Of a DNA stretch of 64,000 nt, positions 27,272-40,733 are shown in pieces. How positions within the stretch are numbered: position 1 is the first letter of the stretch; every line of letters starts with the position of its first letter. This DNA is from Pestalotiopsis fici W106-1 (taxonomy: Eukaryota > Ascomycota > Sordariomycetes > Amphisphaeriales > Sporocadaceae). The position numbers and the translations under genes were made by a program. Under the pieces are notes generated by a model. The model was not told the DNA's origin. It did no database searches and was given only the letters and a program-made list of their open reading frames with translations. The stretch lies in the NCBI RefSeq assembly GCF_000516985.1, contig NW_006917091.1:3369022-3433021 (forward strand), in the 5' to 3' direction.

Positions 27272-27878
27272 GTCCCCGCGGCAGAATCACTAATCTTATT
27301 AGTTACGTCCCTTTATTAACTATTATAATTATTAATTAGAAACGATGCTTAATTAACTCTTAATTTAATATATTCGTTTATTATTATTATTAATATTAAA
27401 CTTACCTATATATTTATTCGCTGATTTATTATATTACTAACGTTTATTTAATAGTTAATATATTTATTTAATAATTTATATTATGCTAAATATGCTAATT
27501 AATTTAAATTATAATAAGCTCCGGGATAAATACCGGGATTATTCTAAATTAATCTTATAAAGCAGCGATAAATCCAAAAATGCTTTTTATAAGCGCCCTA
27601 TAATATAAGTTTAGCGTACGGCAGCTAATTTATCGCACATTTTAACGCTTTAAATCGGGGTTAGACTTCTAAATTAAGGCTTAGCCTATTAAGGCAGCTA
27701 CCATTATTTTATATATCTTTTGGATTAATGGATTAAAAGGTTAAATAGCATTAAAACAGCATAAACCCATATATACCCGCGTAAAATAGCATAAGACCTG
27801 CGTAAAACAGTGTATTATGAGGTAAAGTACTACCTAGATAGGTATCTTGGGCTCCTTGTTGCCTAATAAGATGCACTC

Positions 27879-29609
27879 TTGGACGTCATCTCACCGGAAC
27901 TCGTGGACAATTATTCTCTTGACATCGAAGAAGTAGCCAGGAAAATAATCCCTCCAATCGATGGATGTGGATGCGGACGACCTCACTGTACAGGTGGTCG
28001 AATCATATTTGCAGCATTGCTATCACTGTCTAGACCAGGTCTTGTCAACACGTTGTTCCAAGATTCAACTGAGGCTTTCTGCGATGCCGACTTAGCCTCT
28101 CTGTCTCCAGGGGCAGATGCCCCGAATACCCCAAACCATCTGGCAGAAGCTTTGAATCGGAAATTGTCACCCGAGGAACTCAAACGCTTTATACATTTCA
28201 CGTGGCAGATGAGAAGTCCCTTTGTGGAAGATCTAGCATCGCAAGATCTTGCTGCAGGAAAGCAGAAGATACTGGAACTACCGGCCAATGCTTCATTGCC
28301 GTGGATTTTGCTAGAGGATGCGAAAGACACTTATGATGAGGCCACCACTGTCCAAAAGATGGTCATACACCCGAGTCATCGGAAACCAGTAAGTCGACCC
28401 AGCTTGATTATGACTATCAAAATTTGTCTAAGAAATTGTATTAGGGCATTCTGGACGGAGAGCTCGCTCTGAAAGTCATCTATGAAGACGGCTTTGATGC
28501 TAATAGAGCCAAGAAAGCCTACAAACGAGAGGTGAGAGCCAATTGTAGAGCACCTCGACACGACCGTATTGTACCGCTCTTAGCCGCATTCAAACATCGG
28601 GAAAAATTCCATTTGATACTACCATGGGCACGTGGAGGCAACCTCGCGGATTTATTCCAGAACTATGCCACATCGACAGAGACTAAGACTGAGGAGCAGC
28701 AAGTCGCTGATTGGTACTCCGAGCGATGGCTATTGGCCCAGTGCTTGGGGCTAGCTGATGGGCTGGCTGCGGTGCACCGAACAAGCGACAACCCACCCAC
28801 ATCAGCTCAGATACATGCCGATATCAAGCCTGAGAACATTCTGTGCTTCGCCCTCGGCGAAGCAGATCACGGTCCATTTGATCTGAAGCTTGCAGATTTC
28901 GGTGAAGCGCAGGAGGTAGACCCGGAGACCAACACAGTCCCAGTAAAGCGTGTACCTCACACAAAGACCTATCGCCCACCAGAACATGACACAGATGATA
29001 TTTTGCATCTCAACTACGACGTATGGTGCCTCGCTTGTGTCTTTATAGAGTTACTTACTTGGGCAATTGCCGGGTCTGAAGCTGCAGACAAATTTGAGCT
29101 AGGTCGCCTTGCAGAACGTGACGAACGCAAGGCCACCACTGCGGGAGGGAATGTCTTTGCCGATACGTTTTTCAAAAAGGTGTCAACGCGCCTAAAACAC
29201 AGGCTCGAGCCTCAAATCAGAATTATTCATACGAGCAAGACCGCCGATGGTGAGGATAAAGAAGATGCCGAGGATGGTGAGCGGTCACCGAGAAGTGTAC
29301 TTCGGAGGTGGCATCGGTGGTCGCTAAAGTATACTCGCAACACCCGCATAACAGCTGTTGTCAAGACACAAGTCATACAGGTCAGTACCCCTGCCTTTAC
29401 CTCTCGCTACATCAAGTAGCAGGCATCGCCAATGATCAGATATACTGACTCGTTTGCAGCATATCGATTTCCTGAAGGGAAAGAGTGAAAGTGAAAAGTT
29501 GAATCAATTTTTGGATTTCATAGAGTCAAACATGCTTGTAATTGACACAAAAAAGCGAGCAAGCTCAGAGGATGTACAAAAGTTTCTCGATAATTTGCAT
29601 CAAGACTGA
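27879..29609 (+). CDS. protein kinase domain protein, 5'-truncated at the AT-block edge
   Basis: A predicted serine/threonine-type protein kinase of the kind common in fungal accessory loci. Exons are 27879-28388, 28445-29380 and 29460-29609; both introns (56 and 79 bp) are GT-AG and keep the frame. The N-terminal part has a Cys-rich element (GCGCGRPHCTGGRIIF). The kinase follows: LALK (ATP-binding Lys), a Glu in AYKREV (helix C), IHADIKPENIL (catalytic loop with Asp, Lys, Asn), LADFGE (DFG) and TYRPPEH (APE equivalent), then a C-lobe ending in KRASSEDV. The catalytic residues are present, so activity is plausible. In frame there is no ATG between the stop at 27867 and codon 27879, so the true start is upstream or was lost where the AT-rich block begins. 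Not assigned to a named kinase. Confidence 0.75.
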
Positions 29610-29682: not shown

Positions 29683-32179
29683 CTAATCGCTGTCGTCCGC
29701 ATTCTCCTTTCTATGCGCCTCAACATATTTCCTGTGAATGGTCGCAATTTGTTTCTACTCTGTTTTAGCTAAGGAAATAATCAACAATGCTTCTTAAACC
29801 TACCTCTGTCAGTTTCTTATTGTTGGGGAGCCAAATTTGAATTCCGGGGCGATTCTTATCCTGCTCCAAATTTAGTTTAATGGTATCTCCGTGAAACATT
29901 TATAACTTACATTGACCCTGTAATTCTTGGAGCCAAACTCGTCGTCCAGGTACTTGATGAGTATATCAACCTTCTCATAACGATGTTTGACAATATTATT
30001 CCACTCGAATCGGGCTTTGAGCGGCATCGTGTTTCGAGACTTGAGGCCAGAATTGCTCATATTCCTATCCATAACAGTGGGTAATTCGTTCGAGCTGGGG
30101 AGTGTTTCTGGATTCTTGAGTTTCAGGGTACTCTCCTGTGGCTGCGGTGTCTGATGCGTCTGTTCAGCCGTGGCTTCTTGCACACCATCTACGGCATTAT
30201 TTTTGATGTTGTCATCTGTTACAACTCGGGCAGCGTTCTGATTGTATGATGATGATGATGATGATGATGATGATGTCACTGGAGCAATTCCCGTTGTGCG
30301 AAGAGAGACTTCTCCGACTTTCCGCTTGTATTCCAGCATTTCTTGAATCACACGATCGTCTGTCGAGTCTTCCTGTTCATCAGGGCTGTCAAGGACCTGG
30401 CTTACATGCGGTGGCAGGGATCTCAGTGCAAGCAACCTCAGGTGGCCTACGATGTGGTCTTCCAAGGAGTTTCCTTCTGCTTCTGTACCACACATTGGGC
30501 ACGCTTGGAACATAGGACCGATCGACCGGGCATTCGCGTCGGCGAGTGCGCGAAGTTGCGGCTCTGTGAAAGAACCAGGGTGGAACTCTCTCATATGTTC
30601 TATGTATTCGTTCTCTGTAGGATAGATCTGTGGTTTGTGCGACTTCGCCTTGCAGCGCCAACGTAGGGTATGGCTGCGCATGTGCTTCAACCAATCGCTA
30701 CTGTGGTGATACAGTTGTTCAGGTCTATCGCACTTGTCAAACAAGCATACGTACGCATCGAGGTCACTGGTGACATGGGCCCTATACCAGTGGTTAGCAT
30801 CCGTCCACCGTGTAGTTCTCAGGCTGACAGTCACATGCTTCCATTTCTTGTCGTCGCCAACGGAAAGGCTGGGAAGGACATAGAGGCAAAAAGGGCAGGT
30901 CAGCTCGGGGACGGCCTTGCAGCATTCACGCCAATCCAATTCAAGGTTAACCTGGAGTTCGGTTTCAGCTTGATATATCTGCTCTTGTCGCTCTGAAACC
31001 GATACTAAGCCAGAAAGGGAGTTTATAAATTCCTTATGAAGTTGGCGTCGCTGCCTTTCAAGCGCTTTGTATCGGCTTTTGATCCTCTCGTTTGGGGGTG
31101 GTGGGAAAACGAGGTCCTCATGGCTACCAAGGGGAATCGACTTTGTGGTTGACATTACGGGTGGCGCTGGGGCGTTCTTGTAGGCATTAACAGACAAGGT
31201 GGTGGCACTAACTGCCTGAGACTGTAAGTCGCTCTTGGCTGGTGTCTGGCCCATGACTGGTTGGGAGGCTTTTGCGGCTCCAGGTCCAGCGAGAGCTTGA
31301 CGCTGATTCTGAGGCAATTGTATCAGCGGCTGCGATATAATTTCATGGGTCCGGATTCCAGAGCCGTAGTGAAATCTCCTGTAAAGGATTCTTCTGCGTC
31401 GGATAATCATGGAAGACGCAAGGCGTTCACAGAGACTGTCCTGGATGCTGGGAAATTGTCCGCGGATGTAGCTGCAATAAACCTCACGAAGCTTTGACTC
31501 TGAGTCATTTCCATCGTTGTCTGGTGCGTCAGAAATTTTTGCTACCTTGAGATTGTGAGATTCTCTGCTGGCTCTTCGAATAGTGTTCGAAAGCCGGTAA
31601 AGCATGCTTATCTCGTCAGCCACGGCTTGGACAGACGAGACCAGCCTTGGATCCGGATCGGTCAAAGCATCTTCACTTGTCTGGCTTTGTGAACCTGTTA
31701 TACTCTCAAGAACAAGTGAACCTGCAAGGAATTAGAATTTCTGACTAAAGATGGGACTTCGGGGTAATTTCCAACCACCGTGTCGAGATGGAAACAACTA
31801 TTATAGACAGTCTCACATGACCAGCATGTCACCGAAAGTGCAAACCAGATCCAGGGACATCGGAGAAGAAAAAGAGGGACATGCACCTACACTCCTTCAT
31901 GCCGTAGGTCACATTTTCTAGGAGGCTCGTGACGGCGTCAGCAACGTCGGGGACCTCGCGAAGGCGGTGATCTATGGAGGCTCTCCCCGAAGCAAAGACA
32001 CCAATGTCGGATGCCCAGATAGAAAACCTGGCAAGTTGATCTTCAAAAAGTGTATACTCCCGCGGATGGAGCCTTGCCGCCCTAAAAAGGCATTCTTGAA
32101 AGCTAGAGAGCGCCAGCTCACTTCCGCGCGCTATGAGCGTTGTTGTTGTTGTTGCCGTTGCTTCCTGTGACATTGCCAT
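29683..32179 (-). CDS. C2H2-like zinc-finger protein with fused C-terminal orphan domain
   Basis: I model four exons: 32179-31891, 31721-29911, 29860-29804 and 29754-29683, giving 742 aa with every intron GT-AG and in frame. Residues 1-97 are a helical domain (FSIWASDIGVFASGRASIDHR, then LREVPDVADAV) seen at the N-terminus of fungal NACHT/ankyrin/zinc-finger proteins. A CPFC pair lies near residue 372, CLFDKC near 422 with WLKHMRSH at about 440, and CPMC near 504 followed by HIVGH; together these form several C2H2-type fingers. A poly-Ser run is encoded by a (TCA)n microsatellite (plus strand ATG repeats near 30246). The last ~100 residues match a separate 99-aa gene at 39679-40078, with both introns conserved. 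Probably a nuclear or regulatory protein in a recognition locus; function unknown. Confidence 0.8.
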
Positions 32180-33166: not shown

Positions 33167-36100
33167 ATGGCACCATCGCTTGGGGCTGGTCCCTGGAGGA
33201 ACAATCAGAACGTGGACCTGGTGATACGGACAGCCAGGTCGATTTCCGAGATCGCTAGACTCCTGAGACCCCTACAGACAAACATTGACCTGATGCACTT
33301 TTACGGCAACTTAAATGTTCATTGCGTCCTAGTCAAGGATCAGATGAAGCGCCTTAAGTTTATATTAAGTCCTGCGAACGATCTTGTGGCCCAGGCTCTG
33401 AACCTTTTTGAATCTCTCGTCTCCACCCAAGGGGTCCCGCAAGATTCAGCGCTCATGCTCAACTACAGTAAACAGCGTGCACTGAATCAGCGCTGGGATG
33501 TCCTGCGAAACCAAGAAAATGACGCCAAGGTTCGGTTTATTGATCAATGTTTCAATGTGGTGAAGTCTCCTGGGCTCCGCCCGGGCCAGGCCCTCGATGA
33601 ATCGTTCCGTGCATGGGAAGACCACGTCTTCGCAGCGTACCCCGAAGACCGTTCACAGTGGTTGATCGAAGATTTGCCACCAAAAAAGGTCCGCGATGAG
33701 CCGCCGTACGTTGTATGGAGTACAGCAAATTCTTTGTACACAGCCCTCACCAAATCAGCTAATTGTGGATGCCATCAGAAGCATGAGCTTGGTGCGACGC
33801 TCTGTCTTGGGACCTATCGCAATCCCGAGTCTGAAAACAGCAGTGATTTCGACATGTGTTTCTCACGTGAAGGAAATTGGCAGGAAGCTCGTGTGTATAC
33901 CACTCGAGAGAGCGTGGTCCGATTCTCTCTGAACGATAAACCGCCACCGCCGCAGAAGCAGCTACTGGACTACAAGCCTCTGCTCGTCAAGAAGGAACTA
34001 TGCGAACACATCAAGGGCAAAAGTTTGACGTCACGCCGACTAGAGCTTCGGTTTGAGGACGATTGTCTCTTCAAGCTGCTATCCGCCAAGGGCAAGCTGT
34101 GGACCAATAGCGCGGAACCTACTGTGTCGCTCCAGCAATTCATTGACGACAGATTCACATCACAGCCGACGAGGACGAGAGTAATTCTAGCAGTGCTTCT
34201 GAGCTATGCGGTCCTGCACCTGCATGGTACTCCCTGGCTTCAACCCACATGGAACTCGTCACATATCTTGTTCTTCCGTACCCGGACCAGCATTCCCTTA
34301 CGGCCTTACATTCGAACGCAGCTGGGAACCGAAGGGATAGATCCCGATTGGAGTCACCCGAAGAATCAGAAAGATGGTGATAACCTAACGCAACACCCTG
34401 ACCCATCAAATGAGGTCTCTCCGGATGACTCCGATCCTGACAACCTTGACTATGGTGACCTAGATCCGGACGATATCGAACATCCATTTCCTGCCCTTGT
34501 CACTCTCGCCATCATATTGATGGAGATATACACGAAAACTCCATTTGGAGAATTGGCGAAAAACTGTGACATGCCGCTGCCAGAACTCCCTGATAGTCGC
34601 ACCAGGCTTTCGGACGTGGTGACTGTGTTCACGGAATCAAAGATCGAAAATATTGCCGAGAATTCGAAGTTTTGCAATGCAATAGAAAAATGCCTCCAGC
34701 CGAGGGTGTGGCGAGACGAGTGTGGTGAGCCCATGGATGACCAGACGCTGAGAACCGCAATATACCGAGAGGTTGTCACGCCACTAGAGGATGAACTATG
34801 CGACGCTTTCAAAACCATCACCATTGAGGAGCTTGATCAGATGGCTAAGGAGGTGGACATTGGTAATTGGGGCCAGCCCATACAGAGCCGGATTGCTGAG
34901 GAGATGCCTCCAAAGACCGCAAGCCCCGCGATCGACGAAGTGTGGCCTCAGCGACAAGGTCATTTGATAGGATCTGAAGTAAGATTTCATGATGCTCCAT
35001 TTGCTGCCTGGAATCATCGATCCCAAGAATACCTTCCGCCCTTCTTTGATCTGAAACAGAATCCCGCTCAGGAATCCGAATATGATTCTGCCAGATTTTA
35101 TGACGATGAAAGGCCTTCAGAAGCCCACTCCCGTGCAGAGTACGTAAGCTTCTATTATTTCACTGTGATCTATTGATTGTTTGCCTCTAGCTAAGACTCC
35201 TGGCAATTCTGAGCTGCTCTGTTGTTCATCACACGGCCTGTCTTGCTGATATGGAATCATTTAGGCTCCTGGACTACCTGACTTGGAAAGCCAAATATAA
35301 AAAAGTCTACGAGAAATACATAGAGAGGTCCCCTCAATCTGTGGTGAGGGTTGCGATTCTAGACTCTGGCGTCGATGATGGACATGACCTTCTCAAAACA
35401 GGCCAAATCAAAGACAAGTACAACTGGACAACAGCTGCCAAAAACAAAAAAGTCGCCCATGATCGCGATGGACATGGCACTTTCGTAGCCAGTTTGCTGA
35501 TCGACTATGCCCCTGATGCCGAATTATACATAGCCAAAATAGCCGAGAAAGAGCTGTCTTCCCCTCGAATCATTGCAAAGGTATATTCTCTATATAGACA
35601 ATTCCTGGAACCAACTCAGTATTCTAAACACATTGGCTGACGCAGGCCCACAGGCGATCGAAATGGCCGTAAACGATTGGAAGGTCGACATCATATCCAT
35701 GTCTTTTGGGTACCCCACGAACCAGATTGACGGTTATGAAGAACTCAAAAAGGCTCTCGAAGACGCACACTGCAAACATGTCTTGATGTTTGCAGCAGCC
35801 TCCAATAGCGGTGCAAATTTAGGCCGTGCGTATCCTGCTCGTGAACCACAGGTCATCTGCGTTCACTCGACAGACTCGCACGGCAATCGGTCCAAATTCA
35901 GCCCCACAGCGCACAAGTATAACACCAACTTTGCAACCATAGGAGAAGCAGTAGAATCAGCATGGCCAGTCAATCTCTGCGATCGATTGGCCAACCCGCA
36001 ATTTCTCCAGCTCAAGTCAGGTACATCCTATGCAACGCCCATTGTATCCGGCATTGCAGCATTCCTGCTGCAGTATGCACGGTTTCACCTGGCGGATATG

Positions 36101-36283
36101 GCCGATGTGCTGAAACGCAAGGACAAGATGGAGGAAGTGCTTCTAGAAATTACTAAGAAGACTCCGACGACCATGGCCCGTGACGATTATCATTACATTT
36201 CCTTGAGCCTGTACTCAGACAACCTCTTTGCAAAGGGCAAGCGTTTCATTGATGCGACATTGACTGAAATTCTAAAACGATGA
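33167..36283 (+). CDS. DUF7580-like domain fused to subtilisin-like (S8) serine protease
   Basis: Exons are 33167-35143, 35191-35580 and 35654-36283 (998 aa; introns of 47 and 73 bp, all in frame). Residues 1 to about 660 resemble fungal DUF7580 proteins: a helical start, then an LRFEDDCLFKLL segment, LLSYAVLHLHGTPWLQ, an acidic Asp/Pro linker, and FPALVTLAIILMEIYTKTPF. The C-terminal 300 residues are an S8 peptidase: AILDSGVD (Asp717), DGHGTFVAS (His754), AAASNSGA (oxyanion Asn840) and KSGTSYATP (Ser914). The triad is intact and there is no signal peptide or propeptide, so an intracellular protease with an N-terminal regulatory domain is expected. It faces the gasdermin-like gene, whose stop is 119 bp away; by analogy with HET-Q2 it may cleave that protein. 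The first ATG in frame was chosen; a small upstream exon is possible. Confidence 0.85.
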
Positions 36284-36402
36284 CAGTCCAAATACGATCT
36301 TGAAGTGGGTTTAATAATGCATTTGTTTCACATACAATTTTCAAAACTGCATTGTTGGCTGAAAGGAGGTCTGAGCACCAGTATCATAATTCGAATCTAG
36401 AA

Positions 36403-37357
36403 TCACATCTCCTCCTCATCCGTGGCTGTGACTCTGGGAATCGCGCATAGGACAACGCGATCTCCTTCCGTGAATTCTCCTTCATCATGATTTTCATCGC
36501 TGGGCTTGGGATCCTCTTGAGATAATATAAAAATATCTGGGAGGGCATCTCGAATTTTGTCGGTCTTGCTGTCGAGGAGGGCGCCCTTGGTGTAGTCATG
36601 ACTTTCGTCCACCGCTTGTGTCTTCCTGTTCACATGAATCTTGTGGACTCGGAATGCGAAAACGAAATCACTACTCCCTTCCCAAGTCGTTTCCGTCGTC
36701 GTAACCCTCTTCCCCCCAACCCCAGGCTCAACACTGAGGGGCGCGGTGCCCCCGCTCCAGATAGTACCGTCGACCGCAATCCCGACTTCGCCACCATGCT
36801 GCTTGTGCTTGTAGGACTTTGCTCTTGCTCCATACACGGTTTTGATACCGGTGATTATGTAGACAGGCTTCCGGTACCGAGAGCGATCCAAATAAAGCCG
36901 TACCGCGTCGGCTTCGATACATTTCTGTATGTAATCTTCTTTCGGAATGAATTGCGTGGTCTCAACGCTTTTGAAACCATACAGCTCTGCATTGCTAGAA
37001 ATTTATTTTAGCATTGTACCATTGAGGGATCAACCACAAAGAAGAGAAAGGAGTAGAAGTATAGGCTGGGGCGTTCTCTAACCTGTCTTGCCAGTCAGCA
37101 CCGACGTTGATGCCGACACCGAGAATGCTTAAGAATTTGGTCAAGATGGAAAATCTCCCCTCTCTAAGCTTCTCCTTTGTGTACTCTACGTTGAACTTTT
37201 CTGACGTGAATACCTCGGATGCAGCAGGCAGTGGTGCTGTGAACAGCGGTTGCTCCGGCTCCCCGACTGCCCTGATCACATTTCCTAGCTTTATGGGACC
37301 TTCTGGGGGCCAGTCCCATGTCGGCGCATAAAAGAAATAAAAAACGTTGTTGGCCAT
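36403..37357 (-). CDS. fungal gasdermin-like pore-forming cell-death protein (HET-Q1/RCD-1 family)
   Basis: Two exons, 37357-37083 and 36994-36403, joined by an 88-bp intron with phase-2 splicing, give 288 aa. The features I associate with fungal gasdermin-like proteins are present: an opening FYFFYAPTWDWPPEGPIKLG, ETTQFIPKEDYI near residues 103-114, SRYRKPVYIITGIKTVYGA (130-148), a glycine-rich VGIAVDGT stretch, and EGSSDFVFAFR (197-207). The last ~45 residues are acidic and sit where HET-Q1 carries its inhibitory tail; HET-Q1 is 278 aa. In the known system a neighbouring S8 protease removes that tail and the N-terminal part permeabilises the plasma membrane. No transmembrane helix or signal peptide is visible, as expected. 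The assignment is by motif memory, not alignment; the neighbouring protease supports it. Confidence 0.75.
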
Positions 37358-39678: not shown

Positions 39679-40078
39679 TTATCCCGAATCGCTATCCTCA
39701 TTCGCCTTTCTATGCGCCTCAACGTATTTCTTGTGAATGGCCATAATTTGGTCCTACTTTGTTTTAGCGATAGAAATAATTAATATTACCTATTTTTAAA
39801 ACCTACCTCCGTCAATTTCTTATCATTAGGGAGCCAAATTTGAATTCCGGGGCGATTCTTATCCTGCTTTAGATTTAGTTTAATATCGCAATAAAATATT
39901 TATAACTTACATTAACCCTGTAATTTTTCGAGCCAAACTCATTATCCAGGTATTTGATAAGTATATCAACCTTTTCATAACGATGTTTGACAATATTATT
40001 CCACTCCGGTTTGGGCGGCATCTTATTTCGAGACTTGAGGCCGATGAGGCTCAGAATCCTGTCGACAGCATCGGGCAT
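39679..40078 (-). CDS. 99-aa three-exon orphan protein, stand-alone copy of the zinc-finger protein's C-terminal domain
   Basis: Exons are 40078-39911, 39863-39807 and 39753-39679 (168 + 57 + 75 nt, 99 aa). Both introns are GT-AG and sit at exactly the same positions and phases as in the last three exons of the 742-aa gene 10 kb away. The product opens MPDAVDRILS, contains EWNNIVKHRYEKVDILIKYL and NRPGIQIWLPNDKKLTE, and ends in a charged KKYVEAHRKANEDSDSG tail. The ATG aligns with an internal site of the long protein (MPDAVDR against LPTVMDR), so this is a complete reading unit, not a random fragment. A TATAAAG lies about 18 bp upstream of the ATG. Many differences from the long copy are C/T or G/A changes. 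Family and function unknown. Confidence 0.65.
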
Positions 40079-40733
40079 GTTGAGGAGGCTTTATACGCAA
40101 GCACCCGCCTGACCCGAGTTGACTCCTTTGTTTTATAACTGTTATTACTTGCTGTAAAAGTACGTTGTAGCTGGCTATCTGGTGAGTGTATGCTGAGAAA
40201 TGTCATACTTACAGTAAAAGGTGGTATTCAAAGTGAAAGATAATGGACGAGGCTGTGAGCTTGTCTTGCACAATCAGTCTCATCGGTGGAGACTTTCGGT
40301 GAACAGGAAGGTGGTGTTGCAACAACTCTCGGAGATATTCTGGGCAGACCGATGATCAAACTGGAGTGTCAGACCCGATGGCTCTCAGGAATCTGCCGAT
40401 GTGCAACAACCGGTGTCAGCTCAGTGGCGTTGGGCGAAGCAGGCTGTGCTTATCACGACATTCGAGCTCTACTCATGCTAGGGTTGCACTCAATCCTTAT
40501 TGGCCTCTGTTACAGCCTCTGCATCATGCGGGCATGTGTTGGACGACTCAAAGATGCGGGTGGGCAAGAACCCCGCTTTCTGCCACTCGCCCCGAGAGTT
40601 GAGATGTGTCGGCGGAGCTTCTCCCATAGTTCTCGTCGACTCGACGGCCATATGCATACTAATAACAACGTGAAGCATCTCCACCGTCAAAGCAAGCAGA
40701 CAGTCTGCCATACTTTTAAGGTTGAACATCAAC
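40079..40733. other. gene-free stretch
   Basis: No supported coding feature. It may contain the promoters of the minus-strand 99-aa gene and of the plus-strand CorA-like gene. Confidence 0.45.

What the first reader, a model, noticed from the sequence alone, without database searches (positions are those of the whole stretch)
33167..37357. Gasdermin-like gene convergent with an S8 protease gene: HET-Q1/HET-Q2-like cell-death pair with a new regulatory domain
The 288-aa minus-strand protein has the motif order of fungal gasdermin-like proteins, and the gene facing it encodes a subtilisin with an intact Asp717/His754/Ser914 triad. In Podospora the HET-Q2 S8 protease cleaves the gasdermin HET-Q1 to trigger death. 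Here the protease is fused to a ~660-aa DUF7580-like N-terminal region, which would act as the sensor or regulator, a different input from plain HET-Q2. Seen: motifs, triad, gene order. Known: the HET-Q system. Inferred: cleavage and death.
Basis: partly seen in the sequence, partly recalled or inferred. Interest (0 to 1): 0.92.

Follow-up and report, generated by a model that had tools for sequence, protein, structure and literature searches.

The report
Fungal gasdermin with pseudokinase-protease trigger gene
In a plant-dwelling fungus, a gene for a membrane-puncturing suicide protein sits tail to tail with a gene for a protease that probably switches it on; such pairs are known, but here the protease is joined to a dead-kinase-like control region and the pair has a third, unstudied companion gene.

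The parts
36403..37357 (-). Fungal gasdermin gene (PFICI_01036), 288 aa; exons 37357-37083 and 36994-36403
   Evidence: gene model identical to the annotated protein; RCD-1 sequence match; gasdermin fold
36574..36594 (-). Linker motif Y-T-K-G-A-L-L (residues 226-232), predicted cleavage region between pore-forming core and C-terminal tail
   Evidence: Y 47, G 48, A 48, M/L 46, L 44 of 49 homologues, K 34 of 49; linker 219-241 has pLDDT under 50; coordinates; cleavage there is inference
33167..36283 (+). Q2-L-type gene (PFICI_01035), 972 aa: N-terminal helical region, DUF7580 (pseudokinase-like), S8 protease; exons 33167-35139, 35265-35580, 35654-36283
33716..34798 (+). DUF7580 domain (residues 184-544)
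   Evidence: Pfam E 1.3e-37; kinase relation
35265..36283 (+). Exons coding the S8 protease domain with Asp691/His728/Ser888 (972-aa numbering)
29683..32173 (-). Third cluster gene (PFICI_01034, 740 aa), C2H2 zinc-finger type; exons 32173-31891, 31721-29911, 29860-29804, 29754-29683; its start lies 994 bp from the protease gene's start, divergent
   Evidence: Model reproduces P0195 exactly; linkage
27870..29419 (+). Neighbouring protein-kinase gene with intact-looking motifs (HADIKPEN, DFG); possible but unproven part of the cluster
   Evidence: Pfam Pkinase E 4.9e-21 for frame 28445-29416; ORFs
39884..40081 (-). Decayed partial copy of the C-terminal part of the zinc-finger gene
   Evidence: 76% identical to residues 549-616 of the query frame; short frame between stops

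Best explanation
A regulated cell-death module of the fungal gasdermin/Q2-L kind. Shown: a gasdermin whose pore-forming core is joined by a low-confidence (probably disordered) linker to a short C-terminal tail, convergent with an S8 protease gene that also codes a helical N-terminus and a DUF7580 domain resembling a protein kinase without catalytic motifs. Inferred: at rest the pseudokinase-like half holds the protease inactive or apart from its target; a cue (a ligand, a phosphorylation, or the third gene's product) relieves this; the protease cuts the gasdermin in the linker at or next to Y-x-x-G-A-[ML]-L, removing a ~6-kDa tail; the freed core oligomerises in the plasma membrane and kills the cell. 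The biological use (defence against mycovirus or parasite, or non-self recognition) is not known.
For: Gasdermin by sequence and fold. Intact triad, subtilisin fold. Linkage of 7 of 7 gasdermin loci to S8, 6 of 7 to DUF7580-S8, in varied arrangements (convergent, tandem; zinc-finger gene upstream, beyond the gasdermin, or between), so kept despite rearrangement. Adjacent locus tags in nine other species. Linker motif strongly conserved in an otherwise poorly conserved, low-confidence segment, 219-241. Published precedent: HET-Q2 removes ~5 kDa from HET-Q1; over 80% of fungal gasdermin genes cluster with proteases (PMC12881547 and PMC10989679 passages; PMC10197012 section 15).
Against: No cleavage, pore or death assay. 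One DUF7580-S8 gene of this genome (L020) has no recognisable gasdermin beside it but a convergent 313-aa ORF of unknown kind. One gasdermin (C3) is next to an S8 gene without detectable DUF7580 or zinc-finger neighbour. The L019 paralogue lacks the linker motif, and 5 of 49 homologues miss my relaxed form of it. The kinase relation is weak when tested directly: E 0.092 in a first try, E 6.5e-4 but HHalign probability only 27.5% in a second, no PDB sequence hit, and no isolated-domain model.
Confidence: 0.82

Rival explanations
1. A true HET-Q1/HET-Q2-like vegetative-incompatibility locus, with the two genes acting between strains.
For: Same two protein classes; gasdermins serve allorecognition in Podospora and Neurospora (PMC12881547 passages).
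Against: HET-Q1 and HET-Q2 are idiomorphs in different strains; here both sit 119 bp apart in one genome, as in the general two-gene clusters. The protease is 972 aa, not the 388 aa of HET-Q2 (PMC10989679 passage).
Confidence: 0.08
2. The gasdermin is controlled without proteolysis (RCD-1-like, by pairing of allelic variants) and the protease is a neighbour with another substrate.
For: RCD-1 is the closest solved relative and works without cleavage (PMC12881547 passages).
Against: Linkage to S8 in 7 of 7 own-genome loci and in other genera; linker motif conserved here, while RCD-1-1 reads FGKTSSF where the paralogue L018 reads FAKGATF (one pairwise alignment).
Confidence: 0.07
3. The unit is part of a larger DUF7580 + zinc-finger defence module whose S8/gasdermin arm is one of several interchangeable outputs (HET, HeLo, PNP, S8). 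This extends rather than contradicts the best explanation.
For: Zinc-finger gene within 10 kb of 13 of 29 DUF7580 places, and 13 of its 14 loci are at DUF7580 places; HET-DUF7580 in one frame (L004); HeLo and DUF7580 matches in one frame at three places; DUF7580-PNP (P0184).
Against: Linkage shows common use, not common function; paralogous clusters may descend from few events; 16 of 29 DUF7580 places have no zinc-finger gene within 10 kb, and the three HeLo-DUF7580 places are among these.
Confidence: 0.45

Closest known systems
HET-Q1 / HET-Q2 (Podospora anserina)
   Same: Fungal gasdermin of similar length (278 vs 288 aa) and an S8 protease
   Different: Those two are idiomorphs and HET-Q2 is a 388-aa protease; here both genes are co-resident and the protease carries a helical + DUF7580 region (PMC10989679, PMC12881547 passages)
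Fungal gasdermin / Q2-L two-gene clusters (Clave et al. 2022; seen only through reviews)
   Same: Adjacent gasdermin and multidomain protease genes; S8 in about 60% of cases
   Different: 18 annotated architectures covered about a third of ~1500 Q2-L proteins (PMC10197012 section 15); DUF7580 is not named in what I read, though 'kinase-like' fusions are mentioned in PMC12881547; the third gene is not mentioned in the passages read
RCD-1 (Neurospora crassa)
   Same: Gasdermin core, closest solved structure
   Different: Activated by the meeting of two allelic variants, not by cleavage (PMC12881547 passages)
Fungal HeLo/HELL-kinase proteins and mammalian MLKL
   Same: N-terminal helices followed by a (pseudo)kinase-like domain; HeLo-linked DUF7580-type domains of this genome match kinases at E 9.2e-12
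   Different: Here the output is a C-terminal protease acting, by inference, on a separate gasdermin; the N-terminal helices show no HeLo homology by profile
Bacterial gasdermin-protease clusters
   Different: Other kingdom; protease architectures not compared here

Membership tests
Fungal gasdermin (fGSDM) | Sequence relation to the RCD-1/HET-Q1 pore-forming domain | tested here: met
   phmmer to RCD-1-1 E 1.3e-12, RCD-1-2 E 4.8e-5; HET-Q1 itself was not compared
Fungal gasdermin (fGSDM) | Gasdermin fold | tested here: met
Fungal gasdermin (fGSDM) | Short inhibitory C-terminal tail removed by a protease | tested here: inconclusive
   Tail and conserved linker present; inhibition and cleavage not tested
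Fungal gasdermin (fGSDM) | Membrane pore and cell death | not testable with these tools
   Needs expression
Q2-L protease | S8 (or CHAT) protease with intact catalytic residues | tested here: met
Q2-L protease | Gene within 10 kb of a gasdermin gene | tested here: met
   119 bp; 6 of the 7 DUF7580-S8 genes found in the genome
Q2-L protease | Cleaves the neighbouring gasdermin | not testable with these tools
   Needs assay
HET-Q1/HET-Q2 incompatibility system | The two genes are idiomorphs in different strains | tested here: not met
   Both in one genome, side by side
HET-Q1/HET-Q2 incompatibility system | S8 protease of ~390 aa | tested here: not met
   972 aa with DUF7580
NLR-type Q2-L | NB-ARC/NACHT nucleotide-binding domain | tested here: not met
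   Pfam at E up to 1: only DUF7580 and S8
Protein-kinase-like fold (DUF7580) | Homology to protein kinases | tested here: inconclusive
   For: second profile match E 6.5e-4 (probability 27.5%) against 0.09-0.65 for four decoys; bridge through four HeLo-linked domains, E 9.2e-12 to kinases and 1.3e-11 to DUF7580; viral kinases at Foldseek ranks 10-12. Against: first profile match only E 0.092, no PDB sequence hit, domain not folded alone
Active protein kinase (DUF7580 of this protein) | HRD and DFG catalytic motifs | tested here: not met
   LQPTWNSSHILFF and LRPY stand where HRDxKxxN and DFG align
HeLo/MLKL four-helix bundle (residues 1-200) | Homology to HeLo | tested here: inconclusive
   Helices predicted but hhalign to HeLo E 0.21, no better than the reversed control 0.27; no Pfam hit there

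The most novel reading that the evidence does not exclude
DUF7580 is the chassis of a non-NLR class of fungal death receptors: a pseudokinase-like regulator that accepts interchangeable outputs (S8 protease acting on a gasdermin, HET/TIR-like, HeLo, nucleoside phosphorylase) and in many cases works with a dedicated zinc-finger partner whose C-terminus varies between species and may carry the sensing or baiting function. The gasdermin version is then a three-gene, pyroptosis-like pathway controlled by an MLKL-like regulator instead of an NLR.
Probability: 0.4. Interest if true: 0.75.

Novelty: new variant of a known kind. Interest (0 to 1): 0.5.

Why it matters
A 2025 review (PMC12881547, passages) names the stimuli and the regulation of gasdermin-controlling proteases as open questions. 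A pseudokinase-like regulator plus a regular companion gene gives concrete candidates: remove or swap them and see whether killing changes. The conserved linker motif gives a cleavage site to mutate. If the DUF7580/zinc-finger linkage reflects function, it adds a receptor class next to NLRs in fungal immunity and a gene-neighbourhood handle for finding more effectors.

Tried and rejected
Rejected: an incompatibility idiomorph pair (both genes co-resident); NLR-type Q2-L; an active kinase (motifs absent); HeLo homology of the N-terminus (no better than control). No Pfam model in the copy used covers the gasdermins: 0 families for P0001, and among the 49 members of A1 only scattered matches in one or two members each; three listed homologues carry PF26164 in the database's own newer annotation, a family whose name I did not see. 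The 972-aa VIA-align comparison listed subtilisin-type proteases in all 50 rows, because that domain fills the list; the kinase question was therefore put to the viral library and to profile alignment. The profile of ten DUF7580-bearing relatives without S8 found nothing among PDB sequences. In one search the DUF7580 profile also matched the N-terminal alignment strongly (E 2.3e-14), which is by construction, since the slices overlap. The zinc-finger call for PFICI_01034 rests on database names (UniRef 'C2H2-type', relatives with PF26082) and on reading the sequence; Pfam here gave only sub-threshold matches. Its helical N-terminus was read by eye, not predicted. The L020 convergent ORF, considered as a diverged gasdermin, found no relative in PDB (best E 2, an antibody chain) and one fragmentary own-genome paralogue; left open. 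Paper searches: DUF7580 (0 papers); gasdermin/fungi/subtilisin/pseudokinase (127 papers, 12 listed); acuF + C2H2 + fungi (9 papers, 6 listed, none on this topic by title); 'fungal gasdermin' + zinc finger + cluster (2 papers, listing only); 'fungal gasdermin-like proteins' + protease (16 papers, listing only). The primary paper, Clave et al. 2022, is not held, so its architectures and neighbours were seen only through reviews.

Full report
Origin and gene models. The 288-aa protein is identical to PFICI_01036 and the 972-aa reading of the protease gene to PFICI_01035 of Pestalotiopsis fici W106-1. The window lies in a 51.7-Mb, 20-contig genome held here as G000, at C1:3369022-3433021. Base composition changes at about 28 kb: the first 28 kb are 19-27% G+C in 2-kb bins, the rest 40-52%, so the cluster sits next to an AT-rich block.

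The linker. Residues 219-241 have pLDDT below 50, while 246-278 are again predicted with ordered elements. In the 49-member alignment the part after residue 215 is on average less conserved than the part before (2.22 against 2.96 bits per position), yet it holds Y226 (47 of 49), G229 (48 of 49), A230 (48 of 49), M/L231 (46 of 49) and L232 (44 of 49); K228 is K in 34 and R in 6. A relaxed pattern, [YFH]-x-x-G-A-[MLFVI]-[LFM], is found in 44 of 49. Read from the ORFs, related strings occur in own-genome paralogues L015 (YNKGAFM), L017 (PRGAFL), L018 (FAKGATF) and more loosely L016 (SEAALL) and L048 (THRATF); L019 lacks it. HET-Q1 loses ~5 kDa, probably cut at F238 (PMC12881547, PMC10989679 passages); a cut after 231 or 232 here would remove 57 or 56 residues. 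That this is the cleavage site is inference.

What DUF7580 is. The order of predicted elements (three strands, helix, two strands, helices, short strands, a long disordered acidic stretch at 389-436, helices) reads like a protein kinase to me. Profile comparisons: a first one (43 DUF7580 slices, 7 kinases) aligned the expected helix and catalytic loop but at E 0.092 only. A broader one (63 DUF7580 sequences, 10 kinases) gave E 6.5e-4, score 35, probability 27.5%, against four decoys with E 0.09-0.65, scores 13-23. Four HeLo-linked domains of the same genome that the DUF7580 model hits at E 8e-5 to 6e-7 match kinases at E 9.2e-12 and DUF7580 at 1.3e-11; reversed kinases 0.43, gasdermin 0.41, S8 0.78. 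Viral kinases appear at ranks 10-12 of the viral Foldseek search, E 0.0037 to 0.14, with poor superposition. Against: no PDB sequence hit for the profile of ten relatives that have DUF7580 without S8. The HRD and DFG positions are occupied by other residues, so I call it pseudokinase-like.

Own-genome survey. DUF7580 has 29 matches at E up to 0.001. Seven have an S8 match 184-820 bp downstream on the same strand; I read these as fusions, which is shown for the window and visible in one frame in L016 and L017, and inferred for the others, where introns intervene. Gasdermin queries find seven gasdermin loci, all seven within 4 kb of an S8 match, six of seven beside a DUF7580-S8 gene. The seventh (C3:4208960) faces an S8 gene in which I could not detect DUF7580. 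The DUF7580-S8 gene without a gasdermin (L020) faces a 313-aa ORF of unknown kind. Counts are lower bounds, since the genome search scores exons and limited candidates; one S8 gene (L018) was missed by the family search and found by tblastn.

The third gene. Upstream of the protease gene and divergent from it lies PFICI_01034 (740 aa; four exons, 32173-29683, model exact). Relatives carry PF26082 in the precomputed table, and UniRef names some 'oxidoreductase acuF-like C2H2 type'; Pfam here gave sub-threshold zinc-finger matches only. Nineteen matches in the genome fall into 14 loci plus one decayed fragment that I left out; 13 of 14 lie within 10 kb (in fact 1.1-4.1 kb) of a DUF7580 match, among them all seven DUF7580-S8 genes (random expectation about 1% per locus; the binomial value 1e-24 ignores shared descent of clusters). 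Its position varies: upstream and divergent in the window, L016, L017 and L020, beyond the gasdermin in L015 and L019, between protease and gasdermin in L018, which argues that linkage is kept rather than merely inherited. Elsewhere: consecutive locus tags zinc-finger/protease/gasdermin in Cudoniella acicularis (g12090/12089/12088), Hypoxylon texense (2617/2618/2619) and Scytalidium lignicola (890/889/888), one tag skipped in Purpureocillium takamizusanense (9019/9017/9016), protease and zinc-finger in Cylindrodendrum hubeiense (3625/3626). By equal contig length, of 61 contigs with a fusion (62 fusion proteins, one without a contig length), 25 also hold a listed gasdermin, 15 a listed zinc-finger relative, 8 both; these are lower bounds because lists were cut and clustered, and for chromosome-sized contigs equal length suggests the same contig, not adjacency.

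Other partners of DUF7580. L004 is a HET-DUF7580 protein in one frame (HET E 3.2e-12, DUF7580 E 1.7e-34) and P0184 a DUF7580-PNP protein. HeLo and DUF7580 matches share one open frame at C3:580k, C9:89k and C2:5405k; these three have no zinc-finger gene within 10 kb. So the domain is used with several death-related outputs, not always with the zinc-finger gene.

Literature. Fungal gasdermins clustered with proteases are established (PMC12881547 passages; PMC10197012 section 15 and passages; PMC10989679 passages). The first states that protease domains can be fused to 'other predicted kinase-like domains'. No held paper contains 'DUF7580', and the searches showed nothing on the zinc-finger link by their listings; the primary 2022 paper was not available.

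Judgement. The pair is a new example of a known kind; the domain architecture is a variant hinted at in print; the zinc-finger linkage and the linker motif are the parts that I did not find described. Interest 0.5.

Noticed in passing
L020:3325-4266 (+) and L052:1110-1875 (-): A 313-aa ORF faces a DUF7580-S8 gene where a gasdermin would be expected; no Pfam match and no PDB relative, one fragmentary paralogue on C5. It could be another substrate or effector of the protease.
   Followed up: partly
window 27870-29419 (+): An intact-looking protein-kinase gene lies next to the zinc-finger gene; a kinase match also lies 1.5 kb from the zinc-finger match on C10 (2412346). A kinase acting on the pseudokinase-like domain would parallel RIPK3-MLKL, but among the listed kinase matches (not all candidates scored) only 2 of the 13 zinc-finger/DUF7580 loci show one.
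   Followed up: partly
window 39884-40081 (-): A decayed copy, 76% identical, of part of the zinc-finger gene (residues 549-616 of the query frame), about 2.5 kb past the start of the gasdermin gene.
   Followed up: partly
window 1-28000: AT-rich block (19-27% G+C) that ends abruptly about 28 kb, beside the cluster; it looks like a decayed or repeat-silenced region.
   Followed up: no
window 30784-30840 (-), residues 389-407 of P0195: The annotated PFICI_01034 holds about 19 residues (KHVTVSLRTTRWTDANHWY) that the five relatives read beside it lack, probably an intron read through by the annotation.
   Followed up: no
P0192 (MGG_05803, Pyricularia oryzae): A DUF7580 protein numbered next to a gasdermin gene ends just at the start of the S8 domain: either a cut gene model or loss of the protease.
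   Followed up: no
P0196, P0209, P0232, P0234, P0239, P0243, P0257: Zinc-finger relatives carry differing further domains in the listing (DUF7889, PP1 phosphatase, WD40, EF-hand, PHD, ubiquitin-like, NACHT; accessions, names confirmed only for P0196 and P0209, the rest recalled or from database names). Some may be gene-model fusions, but a variable C-terminus would fit a sensor or bait.
   Followed up: partly
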